The notes under the pieces: generated by a model
What the model was told of the DNA's origin: nothing
Databases searched by the model: none
Seen by the model: the letters and a program-made list of their open reading frames with translations, nothing else
Translations under genes and position numbers: made by a program
Origin: Symbiodinium sp. CCMP2592
Lineage: Eukaryota; Sar; Dinophyceae; Suessiales; Symbiodiniaceae
Reading direction: 5' to 3'
DNA length: 64,000 nucleotides
NCBI GenBank assembly: GCA_905221615.1
Contig: CAJNDT010000335.1
Span: forward strand, 715,864 to 779,863
Shown: positions 5,755 through 63,108 of the stretch, piece by piece
How positions within the stretch are numbered: position 1 is the first letter of the stretch
Layout: the number at the start of each line of letters is the position of its first letter

Positions 5755-5824
5755 TTTGCGAAAAAAATAGGGGTACCTTATTTAGGGGTCCTTATAATCA
5801 GGATCTTACTATTTAGGTTACTAC
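5755..5824 (+). mobile_element. MITE-like element, family B, right-truncated
   Basis: Matches the left two thirds of the family B copies at 11249 and 13195: AAAATAGGGGTACCTTATTT, then GGGGTCCTTATAATCAGGATC, then ACTATTTAGG. The right terminal inverted repeat is missing; the sequence runs straight into a family M element. Confidence 0.7.
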
Positions 5825-5921
5825 TATACTGAACTTAGAACCCTAGCAAAAGTTTTAATTTTAGCTGTTTCTTAGGGATTATAATAACCAAAAACTATAT
5901 AAAACATCAAGTACCCCTAAG
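5825..5921 (+). mobile_element. MITE-like element, family M
   Basis: Shares CTGAACTTAGAACCCTAGCA and TTTAATTTTAGCTGT with 15323-15393. Shares ATTATAATAACCAAAAA and AAGTACCCCTAAG with 14006-14108. The ends are a weak inverted pair (CTTAG/CTAAG). AT-rich and non-coding. Confidence 0.65.
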
Positions 5922-5923
5922 TT

Positions 5924-6031
5924 AATGTAGGAACCTGATTAAAAAAGTTTGGGCCTTCATTAGGGTTCCTTATATGAGTCCTACTATTTTGGGGTTATAG
6001 GCCCAGGGTTTCTTAATCAGGTTCAAACATT
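5924..6031 (+). mobile_element. MITE-like element, family L (108 bp)
   Basis: Terminal inverted repeats AATGTAGGAACCTGATTAA and TTAATCAGGTTCAAACATT, each extending inward to TTTGGGCC/GGCCCAGGG. A second full copy lies at 40936-41047 with the same interior (CCTTATATGAGTCCTACTATTT against CCTTTTATGAATCCTACTATTT). It abuts the family M element on its left. Confidence 0.85.
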
Positions 6032-6300
6032 AGGAGCGTTCATAAATTTAGAGTTTGGGGGAGTTCGGGCTTTAGGGGCTTGGGGTTTAGTGGGACTGGG
6101 GCTTGGGGTATATGACAATGATGCAATGTTATCCAGGCTGAGTTTATGCATCTGCCTTGTTGTGAAAGCTCCTTAAGCTCTCTGTCACAACCCTCGTCGC
6201 GACATGAAGCCTCAGCTCAACCCATAATAGAGGTATGCGTATGGGTATGGGTTTAGGTTTAGGTTGAGATATATGTATATGCATATGTGAACACATATCT
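6032..6300. other. Heptad-derived, gene-free sequence
   Basis: Decayed TTTAGGG words around 6055-6110 (GGCTTTAGGGGCTTGGGG) and 6243-6262, with unremarkable sequence between. No supported gene. Confidence 0.55.
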
Positions 6301-6307
6301 ACATGTG

Positions 6308-6342
<35 letters not shown>

Positions 6343-6358
6343 GTCTATGTATATGTAT
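6300..6358. repeat. (TA)n / TATG microsatellite
   Basis: Alternating TATATA with ATACAT and ATGTAT interruptions. Confidence 0.93.
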
Positions 6359-6469
6359 GCTTATCAACTATAAATTAGGAGCAGTAGCAATCCAAGCTTC
6401 GAACACACTCGAGTTTCGGTACATGCTGAATCAGACTGTGCTGTGGCAAACATGTGGTCGTCGCTGTCC

Positions 6470-6504
6470 TTCTCTCTCTCTCTCTCTCTCTCTCTCCCTT
6501 TCTG

Positions 6505-6582
<78 letters not shown>

Positions 6583-6600
6583 CCTGTCTCTCTGTCTCCT
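6470..6600 (-). repeat. (CT)n microsatellite, opposite strand sense to the 1.4-5.2 kb GA tracts
   Basis: About 130 bp of CT dinucleotides with CCCTTTCTG and CTGTCTC interruptions. This is (GA)n read on the minus strand. It lies outside the macro repeat and its flanks do not match that repeat. Confidence 0.95.
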
Positions 6601-6675
6601 GGTCGCCGCACCGAATATGGATACACCTATTGTGATCTAAACTTCTCCATAATTAGCAGTATCTAGGTGCGTAAA

Positions 6676-6716
6676 AGTATATATGTATATGTATATGTAA
6701 ATGTATATGTATGTAA
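6676..6716. repeat. (TATATG)n microsatellite
   Basis: About six TATATG/TAAATG units. The same hexamer class expands strongly at 51127-51310. Confidence 0.88.
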
Positions 6717-6719
6717 CAG

Positions 6720-7650
6720 GCATATTGTCTAACGACTTCGGTTCTTCCTCAGCATCTTCAGCCCGGATAACAAAAACAGAATAATAACCACAGAGATCCA
6801 TAATAACAAAAGAAGAAGAACAATAATTCCTCAAATATGCACTCACCAGTTCTCCAAACCGCAGCAAATCCATAAACTAAGTTCTTCAACCTTGATATAT
6901 TCCATGAGACATACTACTCTGAATCCTCATAACACCTGAACTCTTAAATAAGAACAATAAGCCAACATCCAAAACTGAAGTGGGCAAGGTCGCTTGATGC
7001 GACTTCCGGTGCTGGCACCTGGGTTTGGGGCTTAGGGTTAAGTCTGCAGCACATTAGATATCTTCTGTTGTCACGAGCTATTGTAAGTCCTGATCCGTTT
7101 TGCTGCTTTAGCAAGTTCGACCTGCATTTCACTGGTGACTTCTTTACAAGTTGTGCTGTTGCACCTCTCCATGTCGTCGGCTTGCTTAAAACCTCCTGTG
7201 CACGATCAGTGTGAATATGCCTGCTCGGGAAAATCCTTCCAGGAAGGCTCACAACCCAACTTTATGCAGATGCGTGTGGCGACACGAAGAAGATGCCGCA
7301 GAGAGCGCTATCACATAGCGATGGGCTCATATCAAGAGCCCAGAAGCTCCAACCCTAAAACCGTAGTAGAACCATGAAGCCCTAGAGCCCGAAACCCGAG
7401 AACCATGAATCCCCATATCCTCCAACACAGGTCTGTGGCACCTAGGGGGCATTGGGGCATAAATTTCCGGGGTGTGGGTTTGGAGTTTGGGCCTATGGGG
7501 CTTGGAACTGTTACTGTCCCTGGTACCCAATGGTTACCCCACCTGAAGCTAAAACTCTCCCAGCAGCCTTGTATCGGAGTGTATTTCCCCCTTGAAGCCT
7601 TGAACTATGAGCCTAAACCCTGAACCCGAATGAGTTCTGCGGCAAGCCCC
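6720..7650. other. Mixed sequence with weak heptads; no supported gene
   Basis: 6720-7000 and 7060-7320 are fairly complex DNA with few heptads. The longest frames (102 residues on the minus strand ending at 6944, 80 residues on the plus strand from 7135) have no recognisable motif. Heptad-like words reappear at 7020 and after 7340. I cannot support a gene. Confidence 0.5.
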
Positions 7651-7671
7651 AAGGTTAAGGATTTAAACCCA

Positions 7672-7760
7672 TATAAGCCCAAACCCTAAACCCACATAAT
7701 CCTGAACCCTGAACCCTAAACCCTTTCCCCACGCAGCCCCAAACCCGAAACCACAAACTC
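7672..7760 (-). repeat. Telomere-like CCCTAAA array, degenerate
   Basis: AAACCCTAAACC and GAACCCTGAACCC heptads interleaved with ACATAATCC variants. Moderate order. Confidence 0.75.
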
Positions 7761-7975
7761 TAAGGCTCTGAAGCATCCGAGGCACCGCAGAGTGGCAAGC
7801 CACCGCAATCGACCCGCAGCAAGAAGGGCGAGCTCGGCAACACTTGGGCCTTATTTGGGGATGTTTCAAAGCAGCAGCCAGGATCTAGGGTTTCTAGAAG
7901 TTGTATAGGGTTTGGGTCGCTAAGTATTGACCGAAGCGTTTCGATCCAAAGTTTGGAACGAAAGTTTTGTGAGAA

Positions 7976-8062
7976 AGCTGTGGCAGGGAGCTGGGGGCTG
8001 GGGGCTGTGGGGGGCTGGGCTGGGTCTGGGATTGGCTGGATGCCGCTGGGCTGGGTCGTGAG
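7976..8062 (+). repeat. GGGCT/GGGGGCTG low-complexity G-rich tract
   Basis: Runs of GCTGGGGGCTGGGGGCTGTG followed by GGGCTGGGCTGGGTC. Its complement class, CCCAGCCCAGCC, appears at 9653-9722, 1.7 kb away in opposite sense. Confidence 0.85.
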
Positions 8063-8150
8063 AACATACAAGTTCTGTTTGTCTTCGTCTTTGAGATTTC
8101 ATGTAGGGTTAATAATCATATACTTGCCCACATAATAACCTACAAAACTA

Positions 8151-8207
8151 CAATACTAAACCCTGAACCCTAAACTAAACCCTAAAGCCCTAAACCCTAA
8201 AACCCTA
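8151..8207 (-). repeat. Telomere-like CCCTAAA array
   Basis: About eight near-consensus CCCTAAA/CCCTGAA heptads, with slips such as AAACTAAACCC. Confidence 0.9.
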
Positions 8208-8304
8208 ACTATTCGGTCGTTTGGACCCTTGGGAATGTAGGCCAGTGAATGACAAGGCAACCTAGACGTCGGCGTACCTTCTTGAAGAGGGGTACAGGAC
8301 GCTA

Positions 8305-8393
8305 ATCCCTAAACCTCAAACCCCAAACCCGAAACCCTAATCCCTAAACCATGAACCCAAAACCCTGAAACCGAAACCCTAAACCCAAAAGCT
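8305..8393 (-). repeat. Telomere-like CCCTAAA array, variant heptads
   Basis: CCCTAAA mixed with CCTCAAA, CCCGAAA, CCATGAA and CCAAAAC variants. It reads into the trinucleotide tract at 8406. Confidence 0.85.
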
Positions 8394-8405
8394 TTCGCTG
8401 GTGAG

Positions 8406-8500
8406 TCCTCCTACTCCTTCCCCTCCTCCTCCTCCTCCTCCTCTTCTTCCTCCTCCTCCTGCTCATCCTCATCTTCCTCCAGCTGCTCCTCCTCCTCCTG
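8406..8500 (+). repeat. (TCC)n trinucleotide tract
   Basis: CTCCTCCTCCTCCTCC with CTT, TCA and CTG interruptions. On the minus strand it reads as Arg-Arg or Glu-Glu runs, explaining the spurious 107-residue frame there. Confidence 0.92.
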
Positions 8501-8597
8501 GTTCTTACGAAATACTGAACCCTAAACTCTAAAAACCCAGTGAACCCCCGAAAGGTGGAGCAGGGAATCAGGATGATTAGTTGAGGGAGTCCCGCTA

Positions 8598-8697
8598 CTT
8601 TACCCAGTTGCGCCATAGTAGTTCCTTTTTGGGGTTGATATTTCGAATCCTGGAAGGTAATCCCCAAACGGAACTAATATGGGGCCTATGGCTAGCT
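8598..8697 (-). mobile_element. MITE-like element, family Q
   Basis: Terminal inverted pair CGCCATAGTAGTTCC...GGAACTAATATGGGGCCTATGG. Matches the copy at 11566-11669: both contain TAGTTCCTTTTTGGGGTT or its near complement, and GGTAATCCCCAA or its complement. The two copies are in opposite orientation. Confidence 0.75.
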
Positions 8698-8757
8698 ACA
8701 GGCACCGGTTTACAATCTTCCAACTTCTGGCTTCTACTGTGGTAAACCCTACAAAAC

Positions 8758-8845
8758 ACCAAGAGCCCAAAGCCCCAAAACCCTAAACTGCATAAACGCC
8801 AGGAGATTACCTCCTAAACCCAAAACCCTAAACCCTTTAAGGCAC
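8758..8845 (-). repeat. Telomere-like CCCTAAA words
   Basis: CCCCAAAACCCTAAACTGC and CCCAAAACCCTAAACCCTTTAA, separated by non-heptad sequence. Short and degenerate. Confidence 0.75.
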
Positions 8846-8962
8846 AGACATAGGTGCTCGAGCAAAAGATGTCGGTACATGCCTGAGTCTGGAAGAAGAT
8901 GGCCTTGGCTTTCACACCAGGAGTGTTTTAATACAGGGGCCTTAATAATTAGAAGAAGGGTT

Positions 8963-9082
8963 CCTTTAAAGGGGATCTATTGCTGTACTGGTGCTATAGT
9001 ATAGGTATCTGAAAAATTTGAGTAGGGTTCCTTTAAAGGGGTCCTGCAAAGTGCTACTATTGGGGCGATTCTAGGGATTTAG
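8963..9082 (+). mobile_element. Left extension of family A element
   Basis: Contains AGGGTTCCTTTAAAGGGG twice (8966, 9024), then GTGCTACTATTGGGG and GGGATTTAGTATA, running directly into the family A copy at 9083. The same ordered blocks precede or abut family A material at 62918 and 37362, and in reverse at 53979. Family A may therefore be one end of a longer, about 200-220 bp element. Confidence 0.6.
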
Positions 9083-9185
9083 TATAGCGCCCTTGATAAT
9101 TAGAATAGGGTTTGGGGGCCCATGAAAGTATAATTATAAGAAGGAACCACCAACATAGTGTCGGTAAATTGATTTGGCCCCTGTA
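9083..9185 (+). mobile_element. MITE-like element, family A
   Basis: Ends TATAGCGCCCTTGATAATTA and GATTTGGCCCCTGTA form the inverted pair. The interior carries the family marks TTAGAATAGGGTTTGGGGGCC, a run ending ATTATAAGAAGGAACC, and ATAGTGTCGGTAA. Possible TA target duplication. Confidence 0.85.
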
Positions 9186-9650
9186 CTAGGGTTCAGGGAT
9201 GGGAGCCAAACGACAATCGGGACCTTTTGAGAGCATAACCCAGAATCAGAACTACCGCAAAGTTTCAGAATCTACAAATTCCAGAGCCGAGCCTACATCA
9301 AATCCGCAAAGAAAGCAAACGCAGGGAGGCGCAAGACAATGTAGGTTCAAGTGGGCTGCAAGTTAACACAGCGCCCCTTAGAGTTCGAATTGGGTTGTAT
9401 GGGCTATTCTAATAACAAGTTCTTACTATTGGGAAAAATATGCCGCGGTGCGTAAAGTATACCTGGCTACTAAAAACTACAAAATTACTATATTAGCCAC
9501 AAGATAGTGCGCCCAATTTTCGGGCCCCCTAGATTAGTAGTTAGAATTAAGAAGAACCCTAAGCCCCTAAACCCTCGAGAAAGAAACAAATGGAAATTGC
9601 TTGTCATTACGTATCATTGTTTACGGAGAACCCCGTAAACCGTCAATTTC
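9186..9650. other. Low-repeat sequence; no supported gene
   Basis: Few heptads, no open frame of note. Contains CTATTCTAATAACAAGTTC and GGGCCCCCTAGATTAGTAG words reminiscent of family A, too decayed to call. Confidence 0.45.
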
Positions 9651-9652
9651 CC

Positions 9653-9722
9653 AGCCCAGCCCAGCCACCCCCCAAGCCCAACCAGCCCAGCCCCCCAGCC
9701 CAGCCCAGCCCAGCCGTCCCAT
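9653..9722 (+). repeat. (CCCAG)n pentamer tract
   Basis: CAGCCCAGCCCAGCC pattern, interrupted by CACCCCCCAAGCCCAACC. C-rich strand of the tract class seen at 7976-8062. Confidence 0.9.
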
Positions 9723-9732
9723 CCCACCCCCG

Positions 9733-9832
9733 ATTATAGAACCCTCTTATAAAACCCCATCATAGAATCCTAGTATCGAACCCTGTTATAGATCCCGATT
9801 GTAAACCCCTTATAGAACCCGAATATAAAACC
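9733..9832 (+). repeat. About 17-bp degenerate tandem repeat
   Basis: Six or more units of the form ATTATAGAACCCTCTTATAA with an alternating AACCC core (ATAGAACCC, TATAAAACCC, TATCGAACCC, TATAGATCCC). It appears derived from heptads with an inserted TATA. Confidence 0.8.
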
Positions 9833-9919
9833 CAACCCTTCAGCCCTCACAGCCATCCCACCGCAGCCCCCAGACCGAGCTCCCCGACCCGACCCAATGG
9901 CTGCACAAACTCCTTCGCG

Positions 9920-10035
9920 AGATGGGGATTGGGGCTTTAGAGTTTCGGGTTTTAGGGTTTCGCGTTTAGGGTTCAGGGCTTTAGGGTTCAGGTTTAGGGT
10001 TTGGGGCTTAGGGGTTTGGGGTTTAGGGCGCAGGT
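9920..10035 (+). repeat. Telomere-like TTTAGGG array, degenerate
   Basis: GGGTTTTAGGGTTTCGCG, then TTTAGGGTTCAGGGC, then TTAGGGTTTGGGGC. G-rich strand is plus. The 65-residue plus frame here (Gly-Phe-Arg-Val repeats) is the heptad translated. Confidence 0.85.
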
Positions 10036-10221
10036 GTGCTGTAGGGACCCAAGTAATTGGAAAATGGTCTGACGTATATGTATTTGCAGCATAATTCTAG
10101 CAGGAACCCCGAGGCGAGAAGATTACCAATTATTATGACTCCTCTATTTGGGGGAAGGTGTAGCTTTTTATTCTTCAGGTGTAGGGTGTAGGATGCAGCG
10201 CGCAGTACAGAGTTTAATCAA

Positions 10222-10322
10222 GAGGCCTTACAGCAACTAGGATCGTGTTTCGAGGAAAAGAACCGCTCTGTTAAGGAGCCCTAGTTACAAGCAATAAGAT
10301 TCGTATACGTTTTGGCCCCTGT
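10222..10322 (-). mobile_element. Decayed family A element (weak)
   Basis: Starts GAGGCCTTACAGC and ends TTTTGGCCCCTGTA, with AAGGAGCCCTAG and CAATAAGATTCGTATA inside. Shares only end and centre marks of family A. Confidence 0.35.
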
Positions 10323-10807
10323 ATTCCGACATGAACCCTTTACGGTGGCCTTGTTTGAAAGATCTATGCAGCGAAGAGATGTATCACAGTCGGGTCTGGA
10401 AGAGACCAATTTCCCTGGCATGGGTTTCAGGTTTGGGTTGAGGCGTAGGATTTAAGGTTGAGGGTTCAACCGTCAAAAGGACAGATCTTGGAGTATCCAG
10501 GGTATCTTGGTTTCCAAACGGACTCCCAAGCCACAGCTCGAGATTTATAGCATGTTTGCATTCAGGGCTCGGTTAGGGCTTTTGAGCCGTTTTTCAAGCA
10601 AGTTGTGCCACCACTGTTTATAAACCCTAAACCCGAAATCGTCAACTCCTACACCCTCTAAACTTCTGAAGTCCTGACTGAAACCTAACCTCCCCCTTTT
10701 TGGAATGTTAGGATAGTATGAGCTTGTGAGCCTGGGCAGAGCTGCATTCCGTAGAATCTGCATCGGCGCCATCAACATGAGGACAAAGGCACCTTCGCGT
10801 TTTTTAC

Positions 10808-10975
10808 AAGCAGGGTTTAGGGCTTAGCGTTTAGGGTTTAGGCATTAGGGTTTAGGCATTAATTAGGGATTAGGGTTTAGGAATTAGGGTTCAAGGTTTG
10901 GGAATTAAGGTTTGGGAATTAGGGTTTAGGGTTTAGGAATTACGATTTAGGAATTAGGTTGTAGGAATTTGGGCT
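10808..10975 (+). repeat. Telomere-like array with GAATTAGG variant
   Basis: TTTAGGG heptads alternate with GAATTAGGG or GCATTAGGG to give a rough 14- to 15-bp higher-order unit repeated eight or more times. G-rich strand is plus. Confidence 0.88.
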
Positions 10976-11225: not shown

Positions 11226-11371
11226 AGGCTTGAAGGGGTTCGGTACTTATATGGGAGTTTCTGAAAATTTGGGGTACCTTTTTGGGGGTCCTTATAAATG
11301 GATCCTACTATTTAGGGTACTATATTAGGGTGCCCTATTTTCGGAAACTCCCATATAGGTACTTCAAGCCT
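11226..11371. mobile_element. Family B element inside a longer inverted repeat
   Basis: The family B element (11249-11356) is bounded by ATATGGGAGTTTCTGAAAA and TTTTCGGAAACTCCCATAT. Outside it the inverted repeat continues as AGGCTTGAAG...GGTACTT on the left and AGGTACTTCAAGCCT on the right. The outer arms are therefore part of this copy or of a host element. Confidence 0.85.
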
Positions 11372-11565: not shown

Positions 11566-11669
11566 CTACCCATAGGCCCCATGGTAGTTCCTTTTGGGGA
11601 TTACCTTATAGGATTCTAAATATGAACCCCAAAAAGGAACTACCATGCGGCCTATTGGTAGTACTACCC
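11566..11669 (+). mobile_element. MITE-like element, family Q (104 bp)
   Basis: Inverted ends CATAGGCCCCATGGTAGTTCC and GGAACTACCATGCGGCCTAT. The interior has GGGGATTACCTTATAGGATTC and ATATGAACCCC. Reverse-oriented copy at 8598. Confidence 0.85.
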
Positions 11670-12120: not shown

Positions 12121-12124
12121 AGGA

Positions 12125-12230: not shown

Positions 12231-12331
12231 AAGGGTAAAAGGAGGGACCCTGAATAAGGACCCCTAGGTATACACCAGTATATACCCATTATATAGCCCA
12301 TTATAGGCTAAGGGTCCCTCCTTTTCCCCTT
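12231..12331. mobile_element. MITE-like element, family J (101 bp)
   Basis: Inverted ends AAGGGTAAAAGGAGGGACCC and GGGTCCCTCCTTTTCCCCTT around an AT-rich centre with three TATACC/TATAGCCC words. Single copy seen in the window. Confidence 0.85.
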
Positions 12332-13194: not shown

Positions 13195-13303
13195 ATATGG
13201 GGGTTTCCAAAAATAGGGGTACCTTATTTGGGGGTCCTTATAATCAGGATCCTATTATTTAGGGTACCATATTAGGGTCCCCTATTTTCGGAAACTCCCA
13301 TAT
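13195..13303 (+). mobile_element. MITE-like element, family B, complete (109 bp)
   Basis: Ends ATATGGGGGTTTCCAAAAAT and ATTTTCGGAAACTCCCATAT. The interior GGGGTACCTTATTTGGGGGT and CCTATTATTTAGGGTACC matches the copies at 11249 and 5755. Best-preserved member. Confidence 0.9.
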
Positions 13304-14005: not shown

Positions 14006-14108
14006 TTAGGTATAACTATATAGGTAGCAAAAATAATAATTTTAGCTTTTTCCTGGGAATTATAATAATAACCAAAAATCAAAAGTTATTTCGAAGTACC
14101 CCTAAGAT
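14006..14108 (+). mobile_element. MITE-like element, family M
   Basis: TTTTAGCTTTTTCCTGGGAA, ATTATAATAATAACCAAAAA and AAGTACCCCTAAG align with 5825-5921. Ends CTTAGG/CCTAAG. A G-run tract (GGGGGGTTGGGGGGGAGGG, about 14162) follows. Confidence 0.7.
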
Positions 14109-15322: not shown

Positions 15323-15393
15323 CTATACTGAACTTAGAACCCTAGCAAAAACTTTAATTTTAGCTGTAAAAACTATTTCTAAGTTCCCCTAAG
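15323..15393 (+). mobile_element. MITE-like element, family M, internally shortened
   Basis: CTATACTGAACTTAGAACCC and TTTAATTTTAGCTGT match 5825 closely; about 25 bp of the interior are missing before the CCCCTAAG end. Confidence 0.75.
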
Positions 15394-15522: not shown

Positions 15523-15602
15523 AGGGTTCATGTGCCCAAAGAGTATTATACAGTATATACTTTGGCCTTAAAGTACTCCCTATATAGGTACATTGGCCTA
15601 AA

Positions 15603-15634
<32 letters not shown>

Positions 15635-15654
15635 TATTTGGGTACGTGGACCCT
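15523..15654. mobile_element. Inverted-repeat element (family N) with a (TA)n core
   Basis: Outer ends AGGGTTCATGTGCCCAAAGA and its partner CTATTTGGGTACGTGGACCCT. Between them is a TACTTTGGCC / TTGGCCTAAAGTATA pair and a (TA)n run from 15604 to 15632. The TA microsatellite has probably grown from the TATA-rich centre of the element. A possible decayed relative is at 23247-23320. Confidence 0.7.
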
Positions 15655-18084: not shown

Positions 18085-18184
18085 GAGGGGCCTTATCTTT
18101 TTGGAATAGGGTTTCGGGCCCATAATACGATACTGAAAAGAAGGTACCCTGAAAATCGTATTGGTTTTATTTAGGCCCCGATAT
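18085..18184 (+). mobile_element. MITE-like element, family A
   Basis: AGAGGGGCCTTATCTTTTTG end, GGAATAGGGTTTCGGGCCCA core-left, GAAGGTACCC, ATCGTATTGG, and TTTAGGCCCCGATA end. Confidence 0.75.
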
Positions 18185-19394: not shown

Positions 19395-19532
19395 GTACTT
19401 GGAGGGTCGGGGGACTTAGTAACTGGTTATTGTCGGGACTTAAAAGTACCACAACCCCAATTAGGGTCCCTTTTAGGGTACTTATAAGTCTACTTACTAC
19501 CTACTTACTAAGTCCGCCGACCCTCCAAGTAC
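19395..19532. mobile_element. MITE-like element, family K (138 bp), long inverted ends
   Basis: GTACTTGGAGGGTCGGGGGA plus CTTAGTAA on the left; TTACTAAG plus TCCGCCGACCCTCCAAGTAC on the right. That is 28-base arms with one mismatch. The interior has ACCCCAATTAGGG, TAGGGTACTTATAAG and a TACTTACTACC repeat. Confidence 0.88.
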
Positions 19533-22781: not shown

Positions 22782-22885
22782 TACGGTTGATTACATAAGT
22801 CCTGCATCACCCATAATAAGGAATATGCCTAACTCCCATAGTCGAAGGTCATTAAGCTAATGCAGGATCTATATCATCAGCCGTA
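22782..22885. mobile_element. MITE-like element, family D (104 bp)
   Basis: Ends TACGGTTGATTACATAAGTCC and ATATCATCAGCCGTA with TCCTGCATCACC/TAATGCAGGAT just inside. Matches 32898-33002 and 45556-45623. Bounded by TA on both sides, compatible with a TA target. Confidence 0.88.
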
Positions 22886-27674: not shown

Positions 27675-27780
27675 TTAGAAGCTGCCCCCACCCTGTAATA
27701 GTGACTATAAGGATTATATTAGGGCCCTATTATATATCCTATTATACCACTATTACAGGGTGGAGTGGGGCCCGTTCTAA
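27675..27780. mobile_element. MITE-like element, family F (106 bp)
   Basis: Left end TTAGAAGCTGCCCCCACC plus CTGTAATAGTG; right end CACTATTACAG plus GGTGGAGTGGGGCCCGTTCTAA. The arms differ at about four positions. The centre carries a second small inverted pair (AGGATATATA-type words around GGGCCC). Confidence 0.88.
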
Positions 27781-29239: not shown

Positions 29240-29345
29240 CCCAGAGCCTCCAATATCCCTTAATTAAGGAATAGAACAAATTACAGTAGGATCCCTAATA
29301 TGATTTAAGGAGTATTCCTCAATGACGGGGTATTGGAGTCTCTGT
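29240..29345 (+). mobile_element. MITE-like element, family G
   Basis: Ends CCCAGAGCCTCCAATATCCC and GGGTATTGGAGTCTCTG; inside, TTAATTAAGGAATA and CCCTAATATGATTTAAGGAG. Copy at 29644, decayed relative at 61936. Confidence 0.9.
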
Positions 29346-29643: not shown

Positions 29644-29753
29644 CCCAAAGCCTCCAGTATCCCTTAATTGTAAGGAATATACCTTAAAATATAGCAGGAT
29701 CCCTAATATGATTTAAGGAGTATTCCTTAATTAAGGGGTATTGGAGTCTCTGG
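29644..29753 (+). mobile_element. MITE-like element, family G, second copy (110 bp)
   Basis: CCCAAAGCCTCCAGTATCCC and GGGGTATTGGAGTCTCTGGG ends; interior GGATCCCTAATATGATTTAA is identical to the first copy. 404 bp start to start. Confidence 0.92.
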
Positions 29754-30045
29754 GATGCACAGCTGCGTCTTGCAGCGGCAGGGCCGCCAAAGAAATCGAA
29801 GGAGCGGATCAGCCTGCGAATTTCCCTCTCCTCTGCTCCCGAGCGCTCACGCGCTGGCGCCGGCGCAGGTGCACAGATTTGAAGATGCAGAGATAAAGGT
29901 ATCGAATGATATATAGGTACAGATACTATTTCGATGTAAATATAGATAGAGGTCACAGTCCTTGCGAACTTCCGCTTTCCTCTCTGATCAGGCTTGTTTC
30001 ACTTTAATTATTGCAAGTAGCATGGCTGCGCCCGACTTGGACACA
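29754..30045. other. Complex GC-rich then AT-rich sequence
   Basis: 29760-29880 is GC-rich without heptads; from 29885 it grades into GATA-like words. Confidence 0.45.
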
Positions 30046-32897: not shown

Positions 32898-33002
32898 TAC
32901 TGTTGATGGTATAAATCCTGCATTACCTTAAGGACCCTTGACTATGGGAATTGTGGTATATTCCTTATTATGGGCAATGCAGGATTTATATCATCAACCG
33001 TA
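32898..33002. mobile_element. MITE-like element, family D (105 bp)
   Basis: Ends TACTGTTGATGGTATAAATCC and ATATCATCAACCGTA with CTGCATTACC/GGCAATGCAG inside. The middle TATGGGAATTGTGGTATATT and CCTTATTATGGG are shared with 45556. Confidence 0.9.
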
Positions 33003-37628: not shown

Positions 37629-37736
37629 TATAGGGGCCTTTATTAATTAGAATAGGGTTGTGGGGCCCATTATACTGTAGTAAATTATCATAACGAACCC
37701 CCAAAATAGTATAGGTAATTATTTAAGCCCTTGTAT
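37629..37736 (+). mobile_element. MITE-like element, family A
   Basis: TATAGGGGCCTTTATTAATTA, GAATAGGGTTGTGGGGCCC, TATCATAACGAACCCCC, AATAGTATAGGTAATTATTT, AAGCCCTTGTATT. Confidence 0.9.
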
Positions 37737-40935: not shown

Positions 40936-41047
40936 AATGTAGGGACCTGATTATATAAGAAACCTTGGGCCTTTTTTCGGGCTCCTTTTATGAATCCTAC
41001 TATTTGGAGGTCATAGGCCCAGGGTTTCTTAATCAGGTTCCTACATT
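40936..41047 (+). mobile_element. MITE-like element, family L, complete (112 bp)
   Basis: Ends AATGTAGGGACCTGATTATA and TTAATCAGGTTCCTACATT, inner GAAACCTTGGGCC / GGCCCAGGGTTTC. Partner of 5924-6031. Confidence 0.93.
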
Positions 41048-41430: not shown

Positions 41431-41453
41431 CGAATTAGGATTCCTTTAAGTCA

Positions 41454-41587
41454 TAAGGACCCTTACGCGGGTAGGGGGGAAGGGGATAGGGGGGCCTCAA
41501 TACCTGTAGTGAGGACTTAATAAGGCCTATTTAAGGAAGTATAGTCCCCTATCCACATCCCCCCTACCCCCCCCCCCTAAGGGTCCC
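41454..41587. mobile_element. MITE-like element, family H (about 134 bp)
   Basis: AAGGACCCTTACGCGGGTAGG and GGGGAAGGGGATAGGGG on the left pair with CCCCTATCCACATCCCCCC, CTACCCCCCCCC and TAAGGGTCCCT on the right. Poly-C/G runs in the arms differ in length. Single copy seen. Confidence 0.85.
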
Positions 41588-41711
41588 TATAGGATTCAAG
41601 TCCTTTCGAAGTCAGTACTGAAAGCCGAAAGCCATCTTTCCTGAGGCAGAGAGGCTCTCATAACTGCTCGGAGATTCGCTGGTGGCCAGCAGCCTAGACC
41701 CGAAACTCTAA

Positions 41712-43470: not shown

Positions 43471-43572
43471 ATAGGGGCCGAAAAAAATTAGAATACGGTT
43501 TTGGTGCCCATCATACTATGATTATAATAAGGAACCCACCAAAATAGTTTTGGTAATTATTTAGGCCCCTAT
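43471..43572 (+). mobile_element. MITE-like element, family A (102 bp), near-complete
   Basis: ATAGGGGCCG and ATTTAGGCCCCTAT ends; AATTAGAATACGGTTTTGG, ATGATTATAATAAGGAACCC, CAAAATAGTTTTGGTAATTA interior. Confidence 0.92.
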
Positions 43573-45555: not shown

Positions 45556-45623
45556 AAGGAATATATGGGAATTATGGTATATTCCTTGTTATGGGTAATG
45601 CAGGATTTATATCATCAGCCGTA
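45556..45623 (+). mobile_element. MITE-like element, family D, left-truncated
   Basis: TATATGGGAATTATGGTATA, TTCCTTGTTATGGGTAATGC, AGGATTTATATCATCAGCC, GTA. Left terminal repeat missing; the break is at the telomere-like triplet. Confidence 0.85.
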
Positions 45624-53878: not shown

Positions 53879-53978
53879 ATAGGGCCTAAGTAATTACCAA
53901 TACTATGTTGGGGGTTCCTCTTTAGAAATGTGGTATCATGGGCCCCAAGACTCTATTCTAATTATTAAGGCTCCTATG
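53879..53978 (-). mobile_element. MITE-like element, family A, reverse orientation
   Basis: ATAGGGCCTAAGTAATTACC, AATACTATGTTGGGGGTTCC, TATCATGGGCCCCAAGACTC, TATTCTAATTATTAAGGCTCC. Reads as the complement of 37629-37736. Confidence 0.9.
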
Positions 53979-56165: not shown

Positions 56166-56275
56166 TATAGGGGCCTGAATAATCGCAGTGGGGTTTTGGG
56201 GTAGACCGGTAGACTGTACCATAGTTGCAATAAGGAGCCCACAAAGTGGTACAGCCTATTATTTCGGCCCCTATA
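56166..56275 (+). mobile_element. MITE-like element, family A (110 bp)
   Basis: TATAGGGGCCTGAATAATCG and ATTATTTCGGCCCCTATA ends; GGGGTTTTGGGGTAGACCGG, TAGTTGCAATAAGGAGCCC, AAGTGGTACAGCC interior. The perfect 10-base terminal pair TATAGGGGCC/GGCCCCTATA fits a TA target. Confidence 0.9.
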
Positions 56276-57918: not shown

Positions 57919-58017
57919 CCTACCTTAAGCCGGAATAACCTGCCTTTTTAGGGTTCCTTATTATGATTTCCTTATATAGGTCCTTAAAACGGGTAGGTTA
58001 TTCCGGCTTAAGGTAGG
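57919..58017. mobile_element. MITE-like element, family I (99 bp), longest near-perfect arms
   Basis: CCTACCTTAAGCCGGAATAA plus CCTGCC on the left, GGTAGG plus TTATTCCGGCTTAAGGTAGG on the right: 26-base arms with one mismatch. The interior has AGGGTTCCTTATTATG and TTATATAGGTCC. A partial relative lies at 62255-62290. Confidence 0.92.
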
Positions 58018-58099
58018 GTTTAGGGCTTTCGGATGTAGATGCATTTTTGTTGTCTTCGAGCTTAGACCCTGTCTTCTGAAGCTTTGGTTCAGGTTCTTT

Positions 58100-58290
58100 C
58101 ATTGAAGTGTGTACCCTGCTATCTTCATGTGCCTCTAGCAACGCCACCACCCGCTCACCAGCGCCTCCGCTACTACCACCACGACGGCTCCTTTCACCAC
58201 ACCGACGACCGCGAGCGCGACCACACGACGACCACGACTCGACCATGATGTCGCCGCCGAAAACAACGGCGATGCCGAATTGCACACAAA
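58100..58290 (+). repeat. Degenerate (CNN)n trinucleotide block
   Basis: GCCACCACCCGC, CTACTACCACCACGACGGC, CGACGACCGCGAGCGCGACC, CGACGACCACGACTCG. Second such block after 40056-40275; open in opposing frames (111 residues plus, 103 minus), which I regard as compositional. Confidence 0.75.
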
Positions 58291-58980
58291 AGCAAAAACT
58301 GCCCCTCAAACTCCGAAGGACACTTTCTCAAAACTTGGGTTATCTCGGCTCTTTAGTGAAGCTCGCAAAATCTATAACCCCACAACTGTCCTTGGCCTTT
58401 CTTGGCATCCTCGGGTTGAGGGTTCAGAACCCTAAAGCCTAGACTAGCCTAGACCTCTTTAGCCGATCAAGTCCTAGGACGAAGGCCCCATCTCTACAAG
58501 CGCCCAAACTCTCAACCCCAAAGCCCTCCTTCCCGCGAATCATAAATAACATTAGGGTTCCCATGGGTTCCCGTTTCTTTTGTAGCCCTTAACGGAGCCC
58601 GTAAAGGAACACTCCGCCAACCGTGCATTCCAAATCCTCAAAATCAGAACGGAGGCAGGTGGCTGACACCCATGTGGCGAGAATCCACTGTCCATCACCT
58701 TCTGGCTCTGTGTGTTTAGGGCCTGGGATACCTGTGATACTAGGACCAGTCATAGCGTGCTGAAAGGAAGAACCTATGAGGCAGCAGGGCTGCCTGTGTA
58801 GATCCTCCCTTCCGGTCCAATATGGTTCGGGAGCTGAGCATTGGGGGATAGAGTGCCTAAAGTGCGCAGCTGCTGGGTGCGATTCCGAGATCCTAAACCC
58901 CATACCCCGAATCCTATCCTGACGATCTGCACTGCTCCCAGCAAAATCCCGGACTTTGGATTCAGGTTTTGACTGTTTGA
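58291..58980. other. Mixed sequence; no supported gene
   Basis: Minus 58589-58903 (104 residues) is open and heptad-free except at its edges, with no motif seen. Confidence 0.35.
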
Positions 58981-58987
58981 AAAAATC

Positions 58988-59022
58988 CTTAAACCCTAAA
59001 CCCTACACCCTAAAACCTAAGC
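58988..59022 (-). repeat. CCCTAAA array, short
   Basis: TTAAACCCTAAACCCTACACC, CTAAAACCTAAGC. Confidence 0.88.
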
Positions 59023-59170
59023 TTCAGGGCTTCAGGGGTCCAACAACGACGAGGGCCTGCCAGCCAGTCGGCCACGGCCGTCTCCGATGCGAGACGAAGC
59101 TGCGTCGAGTTCATCCTTCGGCACTGTTTTGGTGCAAGGGTTGAAGGTTGAGGGTTTACGGTAGAAGCCC

Positions 59171-59262
59171 GAAAGTTGGAAACCCCGTAGCCTCAATCCT
59201 TACGAGTAATGTATAGGGAATCCCAGCACTATTTGGCCTTAACCCGGTTTCCAACTTTATGG
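59171..59262 (+). mobile_element. MITE-like element, family O (about 92 bp)
   Basis: GAAAGTTGGAAACCCCGTAG and CCCGGTTTCCAACTTT ends form a near-perfect inverted pair; interior GAGTAATGTATAGGGAATCC and CAGCACTATTTGGCC. Confidence 0.85.
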
Positions 59263-60540
59263 GGTTTACTGTAGGGCTCAGGATTTAGGATTGTCTGGGG
59301 TTAGAGTTAGAGGGTTGAGGGTTTATGGTTGAGGGTTTCGAATGTGCTTAATTAGAGTTTTGGGAGTTGGGGTTAGGGCTCTCAGTCTCTAGACAGATGT
59401 CTTCCACTTATAAGACTGTATGGCTTGACATCAGGACTTCTATACAAGACTGATACTATGATTCTGACTTGTTTGCCCTGTTCTATATACAAACACGCTC
59501 AGCAAATGCCTCCATACAATTCCCACAGAACTCGGCATACACCGAATGAAAAACAAGAAGTTCCATGATCCTGCAAGTAAACTACCCACCAAACCTCCGC
59601 AGCTTGAAGCCCTAAAGAGCCACTACGTTCAACCTCAATTTCGACGTTCTCTCGCTTCTTACAGTGTGAGGGAACGCTTGGGGCTTAAACGGCTTCATCA
59701 AGCTCCGTACGTCATGGTCAAACGCTTCCAAACTGGCAATCCCAAATCCTAAACAAGAAGCCCGAATTCTCTCAGCCCCAATCCTCAGTACCATCAACAG
59801 CGACATAAAGCTCGATAGAGATCGCGGCTATAACTAGAGTATGCTCTTCTTTTGCAAGTCTGGCTAGTAACACTTTTCGTCAGGGTTCCTGAATATGAGT
59901 GTACTATAATTCGCCCAAGCCGACCCTGTTCAAACCATTAAGGTGCCTCACAGCTCCCTAACTACCTAGCTACAGGCCTTCGAGAAAGCTTTGTAGAACT
60001 CTATACAGGAACGGGACCCCCTATACAAGCCCTAGTCTATGGTTTAAGGCCCCTATATTGCCATAGCCGGGTCACTGATTCGTGCGTTGGCTGAGCTGGC
60101 TAACGCGAACCTCGCCGCACGGTTTGCTGAAAGTGCAGCGGAGCCCTAAACCCTCGGGCTTTCGGTACGTTTTAACCGCCGTAACCCTCAACCCTAACCC
60201 TCAACGCTAAACCGTACATGTTAAATTCTAAACCGTCAGCCTACAGCCCGACCGTAAACCTAGGGAGGAGAGCTCAGTCAGGGTTCTGAGCCCACCTCAG
60301 AAAAAATCAGAGCAACAAGACCTCATGTCTCCGACACACACACACACACATTGCTAGAAACGTTCTCTTTAGGACATATAGGGTTTAGGGTATATCTCTG
60401 AGGGGTTAAGATTGAAGACCATGGAGTCTTTCTCTCGACCCGCTGACTCCTCACGTCACCAACCTGAATCCCATCGTACTGAATGCAAGCAAGAAGGCTT
60501 AAACACATGAAAGCAATCACCCCATCAATCCGTCTCTCAA
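59263..60540. other. Mixed sequence with occasional heptads; no supported gene
   Basis: Degenerate G-sense words 59290-59370, CCCTAAC words 60180-60215, a (CA)9 run at 60334-60352. Frames below 70 residues. Confidence 0.4.
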
Positions 60541-60550
60541 ATTTCCAACT

Positions 60551-60664
60551 ACCTCAACCCTAAACCCTACATACCGGAGCCCTTAAATGCACCCAAAGCT
60601 CCCATGCCAAAACCCCAAACCCTAAACCCTACATACCTAAGCCCTTAAATGCACCCAAAAACAA
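60551..60664 (-). repeat. CCCTAAA words with a 64-bp tandem duplication
   Basis: CCCTAAACCCTACATACC and GCCCTTAAATGCACCCAAA occur at about 60555-60598 and again at 60618-60660. Confidence 0.88.
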
Positions 60665-60749
60665 AACCGCAAACCGCCCAAACCTGAGCTCCCGGCCAAT
60701 TCTGTACCAGTCGGGGCACGCACTTCGATACGAAGCTGGCAAGCCACGG

Positions 60750-60768
60750 TTTAGGGTTTAGGGTTCGT
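60750..60768 (+). repeat. TTTAGGG words
   Basis: GGTTTAGGGTTTAGGGTTCG. It lies 23 bp left of a family B element. Confidence 0.85.
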
Positions 60769-60790
60769 TTGGGCTTTGGGCTAAGCTTCA

Positions 60791-60901
60791 CATGGGGGTT
60801 TCCGAAAATATGGGACCCTGAAACAAGAAACTCTAACTAGTAGGATCCTCATTATAAGGACCCCAAAATAGGGTAGCCCTAATTCTGGGAAACTCCCATA
60901 T
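60791..60901. mobile_element. MITE-like element, family B, diverged interior (111 bp)
   Basis: CATGGGGGTTTCCGAAAATA and CTGGGAAACTCCCATAT ends match 13195; the interior holds TAGGATCCTCATTATAAGG and ACCCCAAAATAGGGTAGCCC in complementary order, so it is the reverse orientation. Confidence 0.88.
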
Positions 60902-61730
60902 TGTAACCATTGAAGCAACCTGTATAAAAGCCTTGTAATGAACCCTCATATAGTCAGTCAGTAGCATTTGCAGAACCTTTTTCATGACCCGCGTAGAACG
61001 CTTGCAGAACCACTTTTGGACTTGTAGCCCTACGGGTTTCGGCAGTCCCTGCTCTTGGTTTGGGCACCTAACAAATCGACCCTGGACCCGGAGAGTAGCA
61101 AACCCTTATGGTTTTGCAGGCGTGCGTGGTGGGCTCGCGCGCAAGCGCTTAAAAAGGCAGGTAGAGGTTCAGAGTTTGGGGTTTAGATTTTGTTGATCCC
61201 CCATCTTCCCACCAACGCCCTCCGGTCACGACCGTGGAGTTCCAAGGATTATGCAGACCTTTGACTGGTTCCATATTTGATGGGGTTTTGGATTTAGTAG
61301 GGTCTCGGCTTGAAGCAGCGGCAAGTAGCAACAACACCTGCGTGATTACCAAGTTCACAGGAACAGTCGTAGAAACAGCAGTAGCAATAAGCGACAGCCA
61401 AAAATCCAAGACATCCTAGATCCTAAGCCAAACACCCTGAAACTCCACTAAACATCTCCATCAACGCTGAGAGCCGCGGATGAAGAATTACTTAGATAGA
61501 AAAGTTACACTGTAAGTCAACTAATGACTAAATTGGGTCGTAATACCACCCCATAAACCCGAAGGGCCCTATAAACCCGAAACTCTGAACCCTAAAACCC
61601 TATCAACCTGGAAAAGCCCAAAACAAACCCGCTTTCTTCAGCGCACTTGGATAATTCTCGAATTAAAGTTCCTTCCTAATTCCCCCGAAATAATACGGCA
61701 CCCTTACAACAGGTACCTAAAAGGGGCACA
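60902..61730. other. Complex sequence; no supported gene
   Basis: Opposed frames at 61149-61409 (minus, 86 residues) and 61234-61419 (plus, 61). Degenerate CCCGAAACTC words after 61555. Confidence 0.4.
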
Positions 61731-61739
61731 AAAAACAAA

Positions 61740-61835
61740 AAAAACTTATAGCCTCCTTACGGAAAACCTTTAGAAACGCTTATAGATCCCTTCAAGGAAC
61801 CCAAACAGGCGACCCTAATTTAGCGATCTACCCCA
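61740..61835 (-). repeat. Family P-like element
   Basis: CTTATAGCCTCCTTACGG, GAAACGCTTATAGATCCCTTC, AAGGAACCCAAACAGG, CGACCCTAATTTAGCGATC correspond to the right part of 47515-47655. Confidence 0.6.
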
Positions 61836-61935
61836 CCTGTAGGTTGGCCAGGAAGTTCGACGAGTCCGTGGCTGCTCGTCGCGCCGCCTGCGACCGTGAT
61901 CGTGATGCCAACAAAGGGCTCACGGCTGTTAGGGT

Positions 61936-62029
61936 CCCAGAGAGCCCAAATACCCCATAATTAAGGAATATACATTAAATTATGAGGGGCGTCGTCATAT
62001 AATGATTTCAGGGAGATTGGGCTCTCGGG
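61936..62029. mobile_element. MITE-like element, family G relative (94 bp)
   Basis: CCCAGAGAGCCCAAATACCCC and ATTGGGCTCTCGGG ends, inner CATAATTAAGGAATATAC and AAATTATGAGGGG. Same order of marks as 29240 and 29644 but clearly diverged. Confidence 0.8.
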
Positions 62030-62620
62030 GGTTGAAGGGCTTGTAGAGATTATAGGGCTTATAGAGTCCCAGGTTGAGGGTTTAGGGTCACCACGGGGTA
62101 TGGGGCTTTTAGGGCTTGAGGTTTCGGGCTTAGGATTTTATTTTGGTTCAGGGTTTCGAGGTGGTTTGAGGTTTCGGATTTCGGGCTTGGGGTGTGCTTA
62201 ACCGCAGTGAACATCAACAAAAACTGCAAATTCAAAAAACCTGCCTCAACAACTTACCTTTTTAAGGACCTATATAAGGACATCACGGTACGGAGCCCTA
62301 AACAGTCAGGCTCTTCAGGGTCGGGAAGACCATAGCCATAATCTCCAGGGCCTTGCGCTGCGCCGCTTCCCGGTACCTGAGCCGATGAGGCACAAACCCT
62401 GAACCCGAAAAAACTCTAAATGAGGAAACTAAGAGCGAGTGGGAAGAGTAGTATGTAGCCAGCAGGTACGGCTGAGGTTAGCTGATGGGCGGCTGGCGAG
62501 CTAGAAGCTTGACGTTTCAGGTTTCGGGTTTGGGTGTCATTAGGGTTTGGGGTTGAGGTTTGAGCGAAAGCTGCAGCACACTCTCCTTAACCGCTACGCA
62601 GAAAACTAGTAAACAACCAC
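62030..62620. other. G-sense degenerate heptads, then mixed DNA
   Basis: GAGGTTTCGGGC, GTTCAGGGTTTCGAGG words to 62190. 62255-62290 (AACTTACCTTTTTAAGGACC, TATATAAGGACATC) is a fragment like family I. No gene. Confidence 0.5.
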
Positions 62621-62626
62621 AGCGCC

Positions 62627-62828
62627 CCAAACCCTAAGCCCTAAACCCTAAGCACAAAGCCCTAAACCCTAAACCCTAAGCCCTAAACCCTAAACCCTAA
62701 ACCCAAAGCCCTGAACCCTAAACCTAAAGCCCTAATTAAACCCTAAACCCCAAGCCCAAATCCCCGAGGCCTAAACCCTAAGCCCCAAACCCTAAACCCC
62801 TAACCTAAACCCTAAACCCTAAACCCCC
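62627..62828 (-). repeat. CCCTAAA/CCCTAAG array, one of the longest
   Basis: About 27 heptad-like units over 200 bp: CCCTAAGCCCTAAACCCTAA with CACAAAGC and CCTAATTAAAC interruptions. C-rich strand is plus. Confidence 0.95.
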
Positions 62829-62917
62829 AAGCACAATGTCCCAGGCACATCTGTGTGCGCCGGGCATCTTCGACGGTGCGTGAACCACTCCAAAGGTCCA
62901 GAGCCCAGTGGCCTCTG

Positions 62918-63006
62918 GGGTTCCTTTAAGGGTTCATGTTAAGGGGGTCTCTGAGGATTACTATCAATGGGGGTTCCTTTCAAAAGGGCCGATTATGGGA
63001 TTTAGT
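62918..63006 (+). mobile_element. Family A left extension
   Basis: GGGGTTCCTTTAAGGGTTC, GGGGGTCTCTGAGGATTACT, GGGGGTTCCTTTCAAAAGGG, GGGATTTAGTATA in the same order as 8963-9082, joined directly to the next element. Confidence 0.65.
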
Positions 63007-63108
63007 ATATGGGCTTGTCAATACTATTTCGGGGGGGGTCCTTTTCGTTTATGTTGTATAATGTATAATCGGCCCCCAACCCCTATTCTAATTATTCAGG
63101 CCCCTATA
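63007..63108 (-). mobile_element. MITE-like element, family A (102 bp), reverse core
   Basis: TATATGGGCTTGTCAATACT, ATTTCGGGGGGGGTCC, TATAATCGGCCCCCAACCCC, TATTCTAATTATTCAGGCCCC, TATA. Core orientation is opposite to the copy at 9083, though the same extension precedes both. Confidence 0.88.

What the first reader, a model, noticed from the sequence alone, without database searches (positions are those of the whole stretch)
5755..63108. About fifteen inverted-repeat families, many about 100-112 bp
Families A, B, D, E, F, G, I, J, L and Q have unrelated ends yet nearly the same total length (99-112 bp in complete copies); O, K and H fall at about 92, 138 and 134 bp. Most have an AT-rich centre with ATAATAAGG/CCTTATTAT-like words, TATAGG or GGTCCTTATA. 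A shared size and architecture across different termini suggests a common constraint, such as one transposase packaging length, a hairpin RNA precursor or a replication hairpin. This is my best candidate for an undescribed system here.
Basis: partly seen in the sequence, partly recalled or inferred. Interest (0 to 1): 0.75.

Follow-up and report, generated by a model that had tools for sequence, protein, structure and literature searches.

The report
Many hairpin transposon families, about 100 bp
The repeats are miniature, non-coding jumping genes shaped like near-perfect hairpins, belonging to many separate families in a large eukaryotic genome; this is a known kind of element at high density, and one family favours telomere-like sequence as its landing site.

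Summary
The repeats are real. A strict hairpin scan finds 13 in 58.7 kb of window against 0 in each of 5 shuffles, and 35 in 60 kb of similar sequence on the same contig. My models place 44 copies of 18 families in the window, 6.7% of those 58.7 kb. The genome is a 1.1 Gb eukaryote, probably a dinoflagellate (not proven).

Six families were followed genome-wide (606 to 3,600 unconfirmed first-look candidates each, the best 40 scored). In 20 fetched copies per family the commonest body length is 90, 98, 101, 104, 109 or 132 bp, with little spread. TA flanks both sides in most copies of five families. Direct, non-palindromic pairs in F2, F6 and F12, and 14 of 20 exact 2-bp repeats in F4 (2.7 expected), show a 2-bp target duplication; gapless empty sites in older elements agree.

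Stem changes break pairs (189 cells) far more often than they compensate (3), so RNA-hairpin selection is not supported. These are MITEs. Targets and lengths differ between families, so one shared machine is unlikely. The mobilising transposase was not identified.

The parts
11252..11353 (+). family F2 element (TGGGAGTTTC...GAAACTCCCA), flanked by TA/TA in a TATA target
   Evidence: genome-wide search
13198..13300 (+). family F2 element, TA/TA
5755..5824 (+). family F2, partial copy
60793..60898 (-). family F2 element, diverged copy
19398..19529 (+). family F12 element (CTTGGAGGGTC...GACCCTCCAAG), 132 bp body, TA/TA
57923..58013 (+). family F7 element (CCTTAAGCCGG...CCGGCTTAAGG), TA/TA in telomere-like sequence
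62243..62319 (-). family F7, partial copy
29644..29754 (+). family F4 element (CCCAAAG...CTCTGGG), near-complete palindrome; flanked by ATGCA/ATGCA
29240..29344 (+). family F4 element
61936..62025 (+). family F4, partial copy
32900..33000 (+). family F5 element (CTGTTGATG...CATCAACCG), 101 bp, TA/TA
22784..22882 (-). family F5 element
45564..45621 (+). family F5, partial copy
37631..37731 (+). family F6 element (TAGGGGCC...GGCCCCTA class)
43472..43570 (+). family F6 element
53882..53976 (-). family F6 element
9086..9181 (+). family F6 element
18086..18180 (+). family F6 element, diverged
56168..56272 (+). family F6 element, diverged
63016..63106 (-). family F6 element, diverged
11566..11661 (+). 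family F1 element (CTACCCATAGG...CCTATTGGTAG)
8603..8694 (-). family F1 element
40936..41047 (+). family F3 element (TAATGTAGG...CCTACATTA)
5924..6031 (+). family F3 element
12231..12330 (+). family F11 hairpin; F11-type sequence is a landing site of two F7 copies elsewhere
41453..41590 (+). family F10 hairpin, 138 bp
27688..27763 (+). family F9 hairpin, 76 bp (a relative lies at L068:3973-4046)
15523..15654 (+). family F26 hairpin, 132 bp; a relative at L005:8688-8873 matches the interrupted site of F2 copy L038
59172..59257 (+). family F8 repeat

Best explanation
The repeats are MITEs: non-coding, hairpin-shaped, non-autonomous terminal-inverted-repeat DNA transposons, mostly 65-140 bp, in about 18 families in this window and about 30 (my division) in the 164 kb of contig examined. 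Shown here: shared ends, near-constant length within each of six families, dispersal, nested insertion with gapless empty sites, and a 2-bp target duplication (direct evidence in F2, F4, F12, one copy of F6, and one empty site for F7; F5 is only consistent with it). TA is the usual target in five families, while F4 takes other dinucleotides. Inferred: DDE transposases encoded elsewhere bind the paired ends, cut the element out and paste it into a 2-bp staggered target, with several transposases or specificities serving different families. Tc1/mariner/IS630, or another group with 2-bp staggers, is the likeliest source. Each family's length is that of the short derivative which amplified; the similar sizes would reflect the lower limit of what can be mobilised, not one shared gauge.
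For: Non-random: 13 hairpins vs 0 in 5 shuffles; 35 in 60 kb elsewhere on the contig. Dispersed: first-look candidates 3600 (F2), 606 (F12), 1870 (F7), 2752 (F4), 2475 (F6), 1949 (F5), unconfirmed apart from the 40 scored for each. Length in 20 copies each: F7 89-91, F5 101-102, F2 102-105, F4 109 (20 of 20), F12 131-134, F6 97-107. Flanks: TA/TA in 19 of 20 (F7), 18 (F12), 19 (F2), 16 (F5), 13 (F6), 1 (F4). TA is its own reverse complement, so the exceptions decide: direct pairs CA/CA in F12, GA/GA in F2 (and CA/CA in a local F2 copy), TG/TG in F6; in F4 14 of 20 direct pairs (AA 5, AT 4, CA 2, CT, TT, TA) against 2.7 expected between copies. Empty sites: joined flanks of F12 copy L052 align without gap over 71 nt to an intact F5 element; F12 L048 (75 nt, in F14), F7 L080 (52 nt, 12 of them past the junction, in F11), F2 L031 (45 nt, in F4) and F2 L032 (55 nt) also without gap. 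TA-target-type transposase genes exist in the genome (PF13358 10 matches; PF03184 150 scored of 218).
Against: No partner transposase was identified. Of 16 transposase loci fetched (6 of 10 DDE_3, 10 of 150 DDE_1), only L068 has MITE ends on both sides of the gene remnant, and there the pieces look like one F28-type MITE interrupted by the remnant; the other 15 have none around the gene. In the five TA families the within-copy match of flanks does not exceed, or barely exceeds, the between-copy match (e.g. F7 19 vs 19.0, F5 16 vs 16.2), since nearly all are TA; F5 has four one-sided exceptions and no direct one, F6 five one-sided and one with neither. F4 does not require TA, which is unusual for Tc1/mariner. 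F2 and F6 have extra palindromic flanks, so their exact ends are less certain. Scored copies were the best matches, which overstates length uniformity and recency. PF01359 could not be searched.
Confidence: 0.92

Rival explanations
1. All families are moved by one transposase or process with a fixed packaging length of about 100-112 bp.
For: Lengths cluster around 90-115 bp; a 2-bp duplication fits all six families tested; some families with unrelated ends share central words.
Against: Commonest lengths are 90, 98, 101, 104, 109 and 132 bp by family; hairpins of 67, 76, 79, 82, 128, 129 and 138 bp occur. Targets differ: F7 at CCCTA/TAGGG in 15 of 18 distinct sites vs 13.3% of TA sites, F2 0 of 21; F2 TATA-adjacent 18 of 21 vs 21% (categories chosen after seeing the sites, background from C335 only); F4 not TA-bound.
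Confidence: 0.06
2. The hairpins are genes or precursors for structured or small RNAs, kept by selection on the fold.
For: Consensus folds are very stable and often nearly complete, e.g. F4 with 51 pairs in 109 nt; in F5, F6 and F12 paired sites change less than unpaired ones.
Against: Across 5050 pair cells in 6 families, 189 single changes break a pair, 85 keep it by G-U, and 3 double changes compensate; in F2, F4 and F7 paired and unpaired sites change at like rates. No Rfam family reaches its gathering score in the window. Dispersed insertion with target duplication is a transposon trait.
Confidence: 0.03
3. The elements are the intergenic face of introners, i.e. TIR transposons that create introns in dinoflagellates.
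For: Introners with inverted repeats and short direct repeats are reported from Amoebophrya (PMC7789003, passages read) and large introner families from Polarella (PMC11453091, passages read).
Against: Copies lie mainly in GC-48% telomere-like sequence (85 in 60 kb, where many exemplars were taken) and hardly in GC-54%, gene-like loci (3 in 40 kb). No gene models or transcripts were available, so splicing was not tested.
Confidence: 0.05
4. F4 and perhaps others belong to a different superfamily (CMC/Plavaka or an ISL2EU-like group) than the TA families.
For: F4 duplicates dinucleotides other than TA in 13 of 20 copies, mostly AT-rich. Published groups with 2-bp duplications include ISL2EU (AT within A|AT|T), CMC (2-4 bp) and PlavakaA (2 bp) (PMC4482050 and PMC12730594, passages read).
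Against: F4 ends CCCAGAG..CTCTGGG resemble those of F1, whose flanks are TA in 5 of 9 motif hits, from three elements. PF13359 (Harbinger-type DDE) has no match in the genome. Plavaka and CACTA models were not searched.
Confidence: 0.35
5. The Rep-plus-DDE_3 element seen at L063-L068 is the partner of F12/F28-type MITEs, and L068 is a decayed copy that carries its cargo between MITE ends.
For: F12/F28-type ends at L068:2249 and 3438 bracket a transposase remnant; the L064 gene carries a Tc3-type HTH and DDE_3.
Against: The two outer pieces (93 and 40 bp) together make about one MITE, and the remnant lies between its own repeated stretches with 23-bp inverted ends; the related loci L063-L067 lack such ends. 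A nested insertion explains this more simply.
Confidence: 0.05

Closest known systems
Stowaway-type and other Tc1/mariner MITEs (traits recalled, from no call)
   Same: Short, non-coding, hairpin-forming, TA duplication, many copies, nested insertions.
   Different: Ends here are not the recalled Stowaway CTCCCTCC; many unrelated ends; arms often run nearly to the centre; F4 does not need TA; partner transposase unknown.
ERIC/RUP-like bacterial repeats (RU-1 of 127 bp and RU-3 of 103 bp seen in the search listing of PMC2759123; TA duplication and the IS630 link are recalled)
   Same: About 100-130 bp, dispersed, MITE-like; near-complete palindromes (recalled).
   Different: Eukaryotic genome, many families; sequence relation not tested.
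Introner elements of dinoflagellates (PMC7789003, PMC11453091, PMC9860276; passages read)
   Same: Many families with inverted repeats and short direct repeats, in a kind of genome that this one probably is.
   Different: Introners sit in genes as introns; these lie mainly in non-genic telomere-like sequence.
PIF/Harbinger (Tourist) MITEs
   Same: AT-rich targets, hairpins.
   Different: 3-bp duplication not seen at the element borders (0-1 of 20 per family); no PF13359 match.

Membership tests
MITE (non-autonomous TIR DNA transposon) | Terminal inverted repeats shared by the copies of a family | tested here: met
   (20 fetched copies per family, six families)
MITE (non-autonomous TIR DNA transposon) | Target site duplication of fixed length | tested here: met
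   2 bp: direct non-TA pairs in F2, F6, F12 and 13 of 20 in F4, 14 vs 2.7 expected in F4, gapless empty sites for F12, F2, F7; F5 only consistent
MITE (non-autonomous TIR DNA transposon) | High copy number, short and homogeneous length, no room for a transposase gene | tested here: met
   606-3600 first-look candidates, 40 scored per family; bodies 89-134 bp
MITE (non-autonomous TIR DNA transposon) | An autonomous element with matching ends in the genome | tested here: inconclusive
   16 transposase loci: 15 without MITE ends around the gene, L068 with F28-type ends around a remnant, most simply a nested insertion
Tc1/mariner/IS630 superfamily | TA target duplication | tested here: inconclusive
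   usual in F2, F5, F6, F7, F12; TA/TA in only 1 of 20 F4 copies
Tc1/mariner/IS630 superfamily | DD34E-type transposase that moves the elements | tested here: inconclusive
   DDE_3 with Tc3 HTH present (DD34E spacing counted by eye), not linked to the MITEs
PIF/Harbinger | 3-bp duplication and DDE_Tnp_4 transposase | tested here: not met
   3-bp direct pairs at the border 0-1 of 20 in each family; a small off-border excess in F4 (3 of 20 vs 0.5 at offset 1); PF13359 0 matches
Introner | Copies exactly fill spliced introns | not testable with these tools
   no transcripts or gene models; distribution argues against
Structured RNA gene | Compensatory substitutions in the stem | tested here: not met
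   3 compensated vs 189 broken cells of 5050

The most novel reading that the evidence does not exclude
In this genome many transposase lineages, not one, have independently produced near-complete hairpin elements of about 65-140 bp, implying a size or fold limit set by the host nucleus or by a snap-back step that keeps the two arms alike. Consistent with this, F2 and an F13 copy (L004) differ at 5 of the first 17 bases with all five mirrored in both arms, while single copies mostly change one arm only. One lineage (F7) has a preference for CCCTA/TAGGG, so that telomere-like DNA became its landing pad.
Probability: 0.15. Interest if true: 0.65.

Novelty: new member of a known kind. Interest (0 to 1): 0.4.

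Why it matters
The elements make up part of the repeat texture in non-genic sequence of this genome (6.7% of the 58.7 kb modelled), give ordered layers of insertion through nesting, and offer a natural experiment on target choice: families of similar architecture that differ in TA stringency and flanking preference, one of them for telomere-like repeats. For annotation they are a caution that stable hairpins here are transposons, not RNA genes.

Tried and rejected
One packaging length: rejected on family lengths and target preferences. RNA hairpin selection: not supported. Copied target palindromes: for F2, complementarity of left and right flanks within copies is about that between copies (1.54 vs 1.42 of 2, 2.58 vs 2.47 of 6, 1.42 vs 1.53 of 6), so a target consensus explains the symmetric flanks. 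Autonomous partner among DDE_3 loci (L063-L068) and DDE_1 loci (L069-L078): none with MITE ends around an intact gene; L068 is the one exception with ends around a remnant. PF13359: no match. Pfam scans of 10 of the 23 window frames of 130 aa or more: nothing over a curated cut-off. In one search the F14a comparison was sliced one base off; I dropped it; the other F12/F14 pairs gave 3 mirrored and 0 not, and 2 and 1. Copy w60780 was not parsed and is not among its 24. For target statistics F12 sites L047 (CA/CA) and the duplicate L050, F2 sites L035, L003_8238 and L005_1204, and F7 duplicates L089 and L092 were left out; the two categories were chosen after seeing the sites, so the p-values are descriptive. 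Copies studied are 20 of the 40 best-scoring per family. F26 carries an AT tract that also matches simple AT repeats. Organism: RF01960 and PF02429 did not complete; PF01359 likewise.
Full report
Setting. The window is C335:715864-779863 of a 1.098 Gb, 5383-contig assembly. Ten of its 23 longer frames were scanned and gave nothing over a Pfam cut-off; no Rfam family reaches its gathering score. It is 48% GC and carries about 4.6 CCCTAAA/TTTAGGG words per kb; four other stretches of the contig are 54-55% GC and nearly free of such words, and one of them encodes RCC1 repeats. A dinoflagellate is likely from genome size, TTTAGGG-type repeats (dinoflagellate telomeres, PMC11453091, passage) and RCC1 genes (recalled), but no marker search was answered, so this stays an inference.

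Observation. A strict hairpin scan gives 13 hits in 58.7 kb of window against none in five shuffles, 35 in 60 kb of similar loci, 0 in 40 kb of GC-rich loci and 0 in 100 kb of a bacterial contig. Self-comparison shows recurrent families; 13 of 14 window queries have relatives in other C335 loci. Thirty models, partly single copies from these very loci, mark 44 copies of 18 families in the window, 85 copies in the 60 kb of GC-48% loci and 3 in the 40 kb of GC-54% loci.

Copies across the genome. First-look candidates number 3600 (F2), 606 (F12), 1870 (F7), 2752 (F4), 2475 (F6) and 1949 (F5); only the best 40 were scored for each, so true copy numbers are not known. I fetched 20 copies per family with flanks. 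Bodies: F7 89-91, F5 101-102, F2 102-105, F4 109 in 20 of 20, F12 131-134, F6 97-107 bp. Mean difference from consensus: F7 0.8%, F12 2.1%, F5 3.4%, F4 3.5%, F2 3.6%, F6 6.4%; among these best-matching copies F7 looks the most recent.

Target duplication. TA lies on both sides in 19 of 20 (F7), 18 (F12), 19 (F2), 16 (F5), 13 (F6) and 1 (F4). As TA is palindromic this alone could be the tip of an inverted repeat, and in the TA families pairing flanks of different copies matches as often (F7 19 vs 19.0, F5 16 vs 16.2) or nearly so (F2 20 vs 18.0, F12 19 vs 17.1, F6 14 vs 11.7). The exceptions help: CA/CA (F12), GA/GA (F2), TG/TG (F6) and CA/CA in a local F2 copy are direct, not inverted. Other exceptions are one-sided: four in F5, five in F6, one each in F7 and F12. 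In F4, 14 of 20 copies carry an identical dinucleotide on both sides against 2.7 expected; at that border no 3-, 4- or 6-bp pair and one 5-bp pair occur. Joined flanks of 25 of 120 copies match a held locus across the junction; some of these are telomere-like or weak matches, but several lie inside other families: F12 L052 in F5 (71 nt, no gap), F12 L048 in F14 (75, no gap), F7 L080 in F11 (52, no gap, 12 past the junction), F2 L031 in F4 (45, no gap), F7 L098 in F11 (with gaps) and F2 L038 in an F26 relative (one gap). No convincing empty site was found for F4, F5 or F6.

Target choice. Among distinct sites, F7 lies at CCCTA or TAGGG in 15 of 18, against 1095 of 8207 (13.3%) TA sites in C335 GC-48% loci (p 4e-11); F12 in 7 of 18 (p 0.006); F2 in 0 of 21. 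F2 lies next to another TA in 18 of 21 against 21%. The categories were chosen after seeing the sites and the background comes from one contig, so the p-values are descriptive; the contrast between F7 and F2 does not depend on the background. The families differ in specificity, which speaks against one machine for all.

Structure. Consensus folds pair much of each element (F4: 51 pairs in 109 nt; F6: 32 in 98). Between copies, 189 of 5050 pair cells are broken by one-sided change, 85 are kept by G-U, 3 are compensated and 2 are broken by double change. In F5, F6 and F12 paired sites change less than unpaired ones (0.029 vs 0.055, 0.053 vs 0.085, 0.013 vs 0.042), which may reflect constraint at the ends, recency or alignment; in F2, F4 and F7 the rates are alike. 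Between F2 and F13, 5 of the first 17 bases differ and all are mirrored in both arms for the L004 copy; for the L006 copy 3 are mirrored and 4 are not. Mirrored change between families with one-sided decay between copies is what masters selected for two like ends, followed by neutral copies, would give.

Shared centres. 18 of 378 family pairs exceed the 99% level of shuffled pairs (about 4 expected) and 6 the 99.9% level (0.4 expected). The top pairs include families with similar ends, but a good part of the 18 have unrelated ends, such as F6/F7 with 17 identical central bases, F2/F3 and F3/F7.

Partner. DDE_3 matches number 10. Of three frames scanned, one is a 390-aa frame with HTH_Tnp_Tc3_2 and DDE_3, one a 683-aa frame with DDE_3 over its cut-off and weaker, below-cut-off matches to the Tc3 HTH, DnaJ, the geminivirus Rep catalytic domain and an AAA domain, and one gave no hit. 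DDE_1 gave 150 scored matches of 218 candidates, many in tandem. Of 16 loci fetched, 15 have no MITE ends around the gene. In L068, F12/F28-type ends at 2249 and 3438 bracket a transposase remnant; the outer pieces, 93 and 40 bp, add up to about one MITE and the remnant lies between its own repeats, so nested insertion is the simplest reading. PF13359 gives none.

Mechanism. Shown: dispersed, nested insertion of elements with paired ends and, in most families tested, a 2-bp duplication. Inferred: cut-and-paste by DDE transposases acting in trans on deletion derivatives. The superfamily is not settled: TA families fit Tc1/mariner/IS630, but other groups with TA or 2-bp duplications are in print (PMC12730594, PMC4482050, passages read), and F4 fits Tc1/mariner poorly.

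Literature. Searches for MITEs with Symbiodinium (4 papers), dinoflagellate with MITE, Tc1 and TIR (none), and Symbiodiniaceae with terminal inverted repeat and transposon (2 papers) listed no title that describes such families; the library lacks most subscription journals, so this is no proof of absence.

Noticed in passing
L065:536-2584 (also L063, L064, L066-L068; three matches about 3.56 kb apart on C2846): An open frame with a DDE_3 transposase domain and below-cut-off matches to DnaJ, a geminivirus-type Rep catalytic domain and a Tc3-type HTH; three related loci (L064, L065, L068) carry a stretch of about 250 bp, repeated in L065 and L068. Possibly a Rep-plus-transposase mobile element of viral ancestry. 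Described only.
   Followed up: partly
L068:2249-3438: F12/F28-type MITE ends on both sides of a remnant of that transposase; probably one MITE interrupted by it.
   Followed up: partly
G000 C1430, C1739, C5152, C2496 and others: 150 scored DDE_1 (pogo-type) matches, many in tandem arrays, with open frames of 96-627 aa; perhaps host genes derived from transposases.
   Followed up: partly
window, mostly after 5300: Degenerate TTTAGGG/CCCTAAA words throughout GC-48% sequence, about 4.6 per kb, nearly absent from GC-54% stretches of the same contig.
   Followed up: partly
L149; also L101, L062 and L057: An F5 copy is flanked by an 18-bp exact direct repeat, an F4 copy by a near-identical one of about 19 bp, and F12 copies have repeats near their flanks, as if some insertions sit in locally duplicated targets.
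   Followed up: no
window 1-5300: A different region with GA-rich tracts, long repeated stretches and an AAATTTTTGAA-type array at its start.
   Followed up: no
G000:C5051: A 2.96 Mb contig, 53-58% GC in ten samples, with the same Y1_Tnp match near both ends: apparently a bacterial chromosome in the assembly.
   Followed up: no
window 5846-5921, 14027-14106, 15345-15367; L006:9125-9201: A further repeat (F3b, GCAAAAGTTTTAATTTTAGCT...) without clear inverted ends.
   Followed up: no
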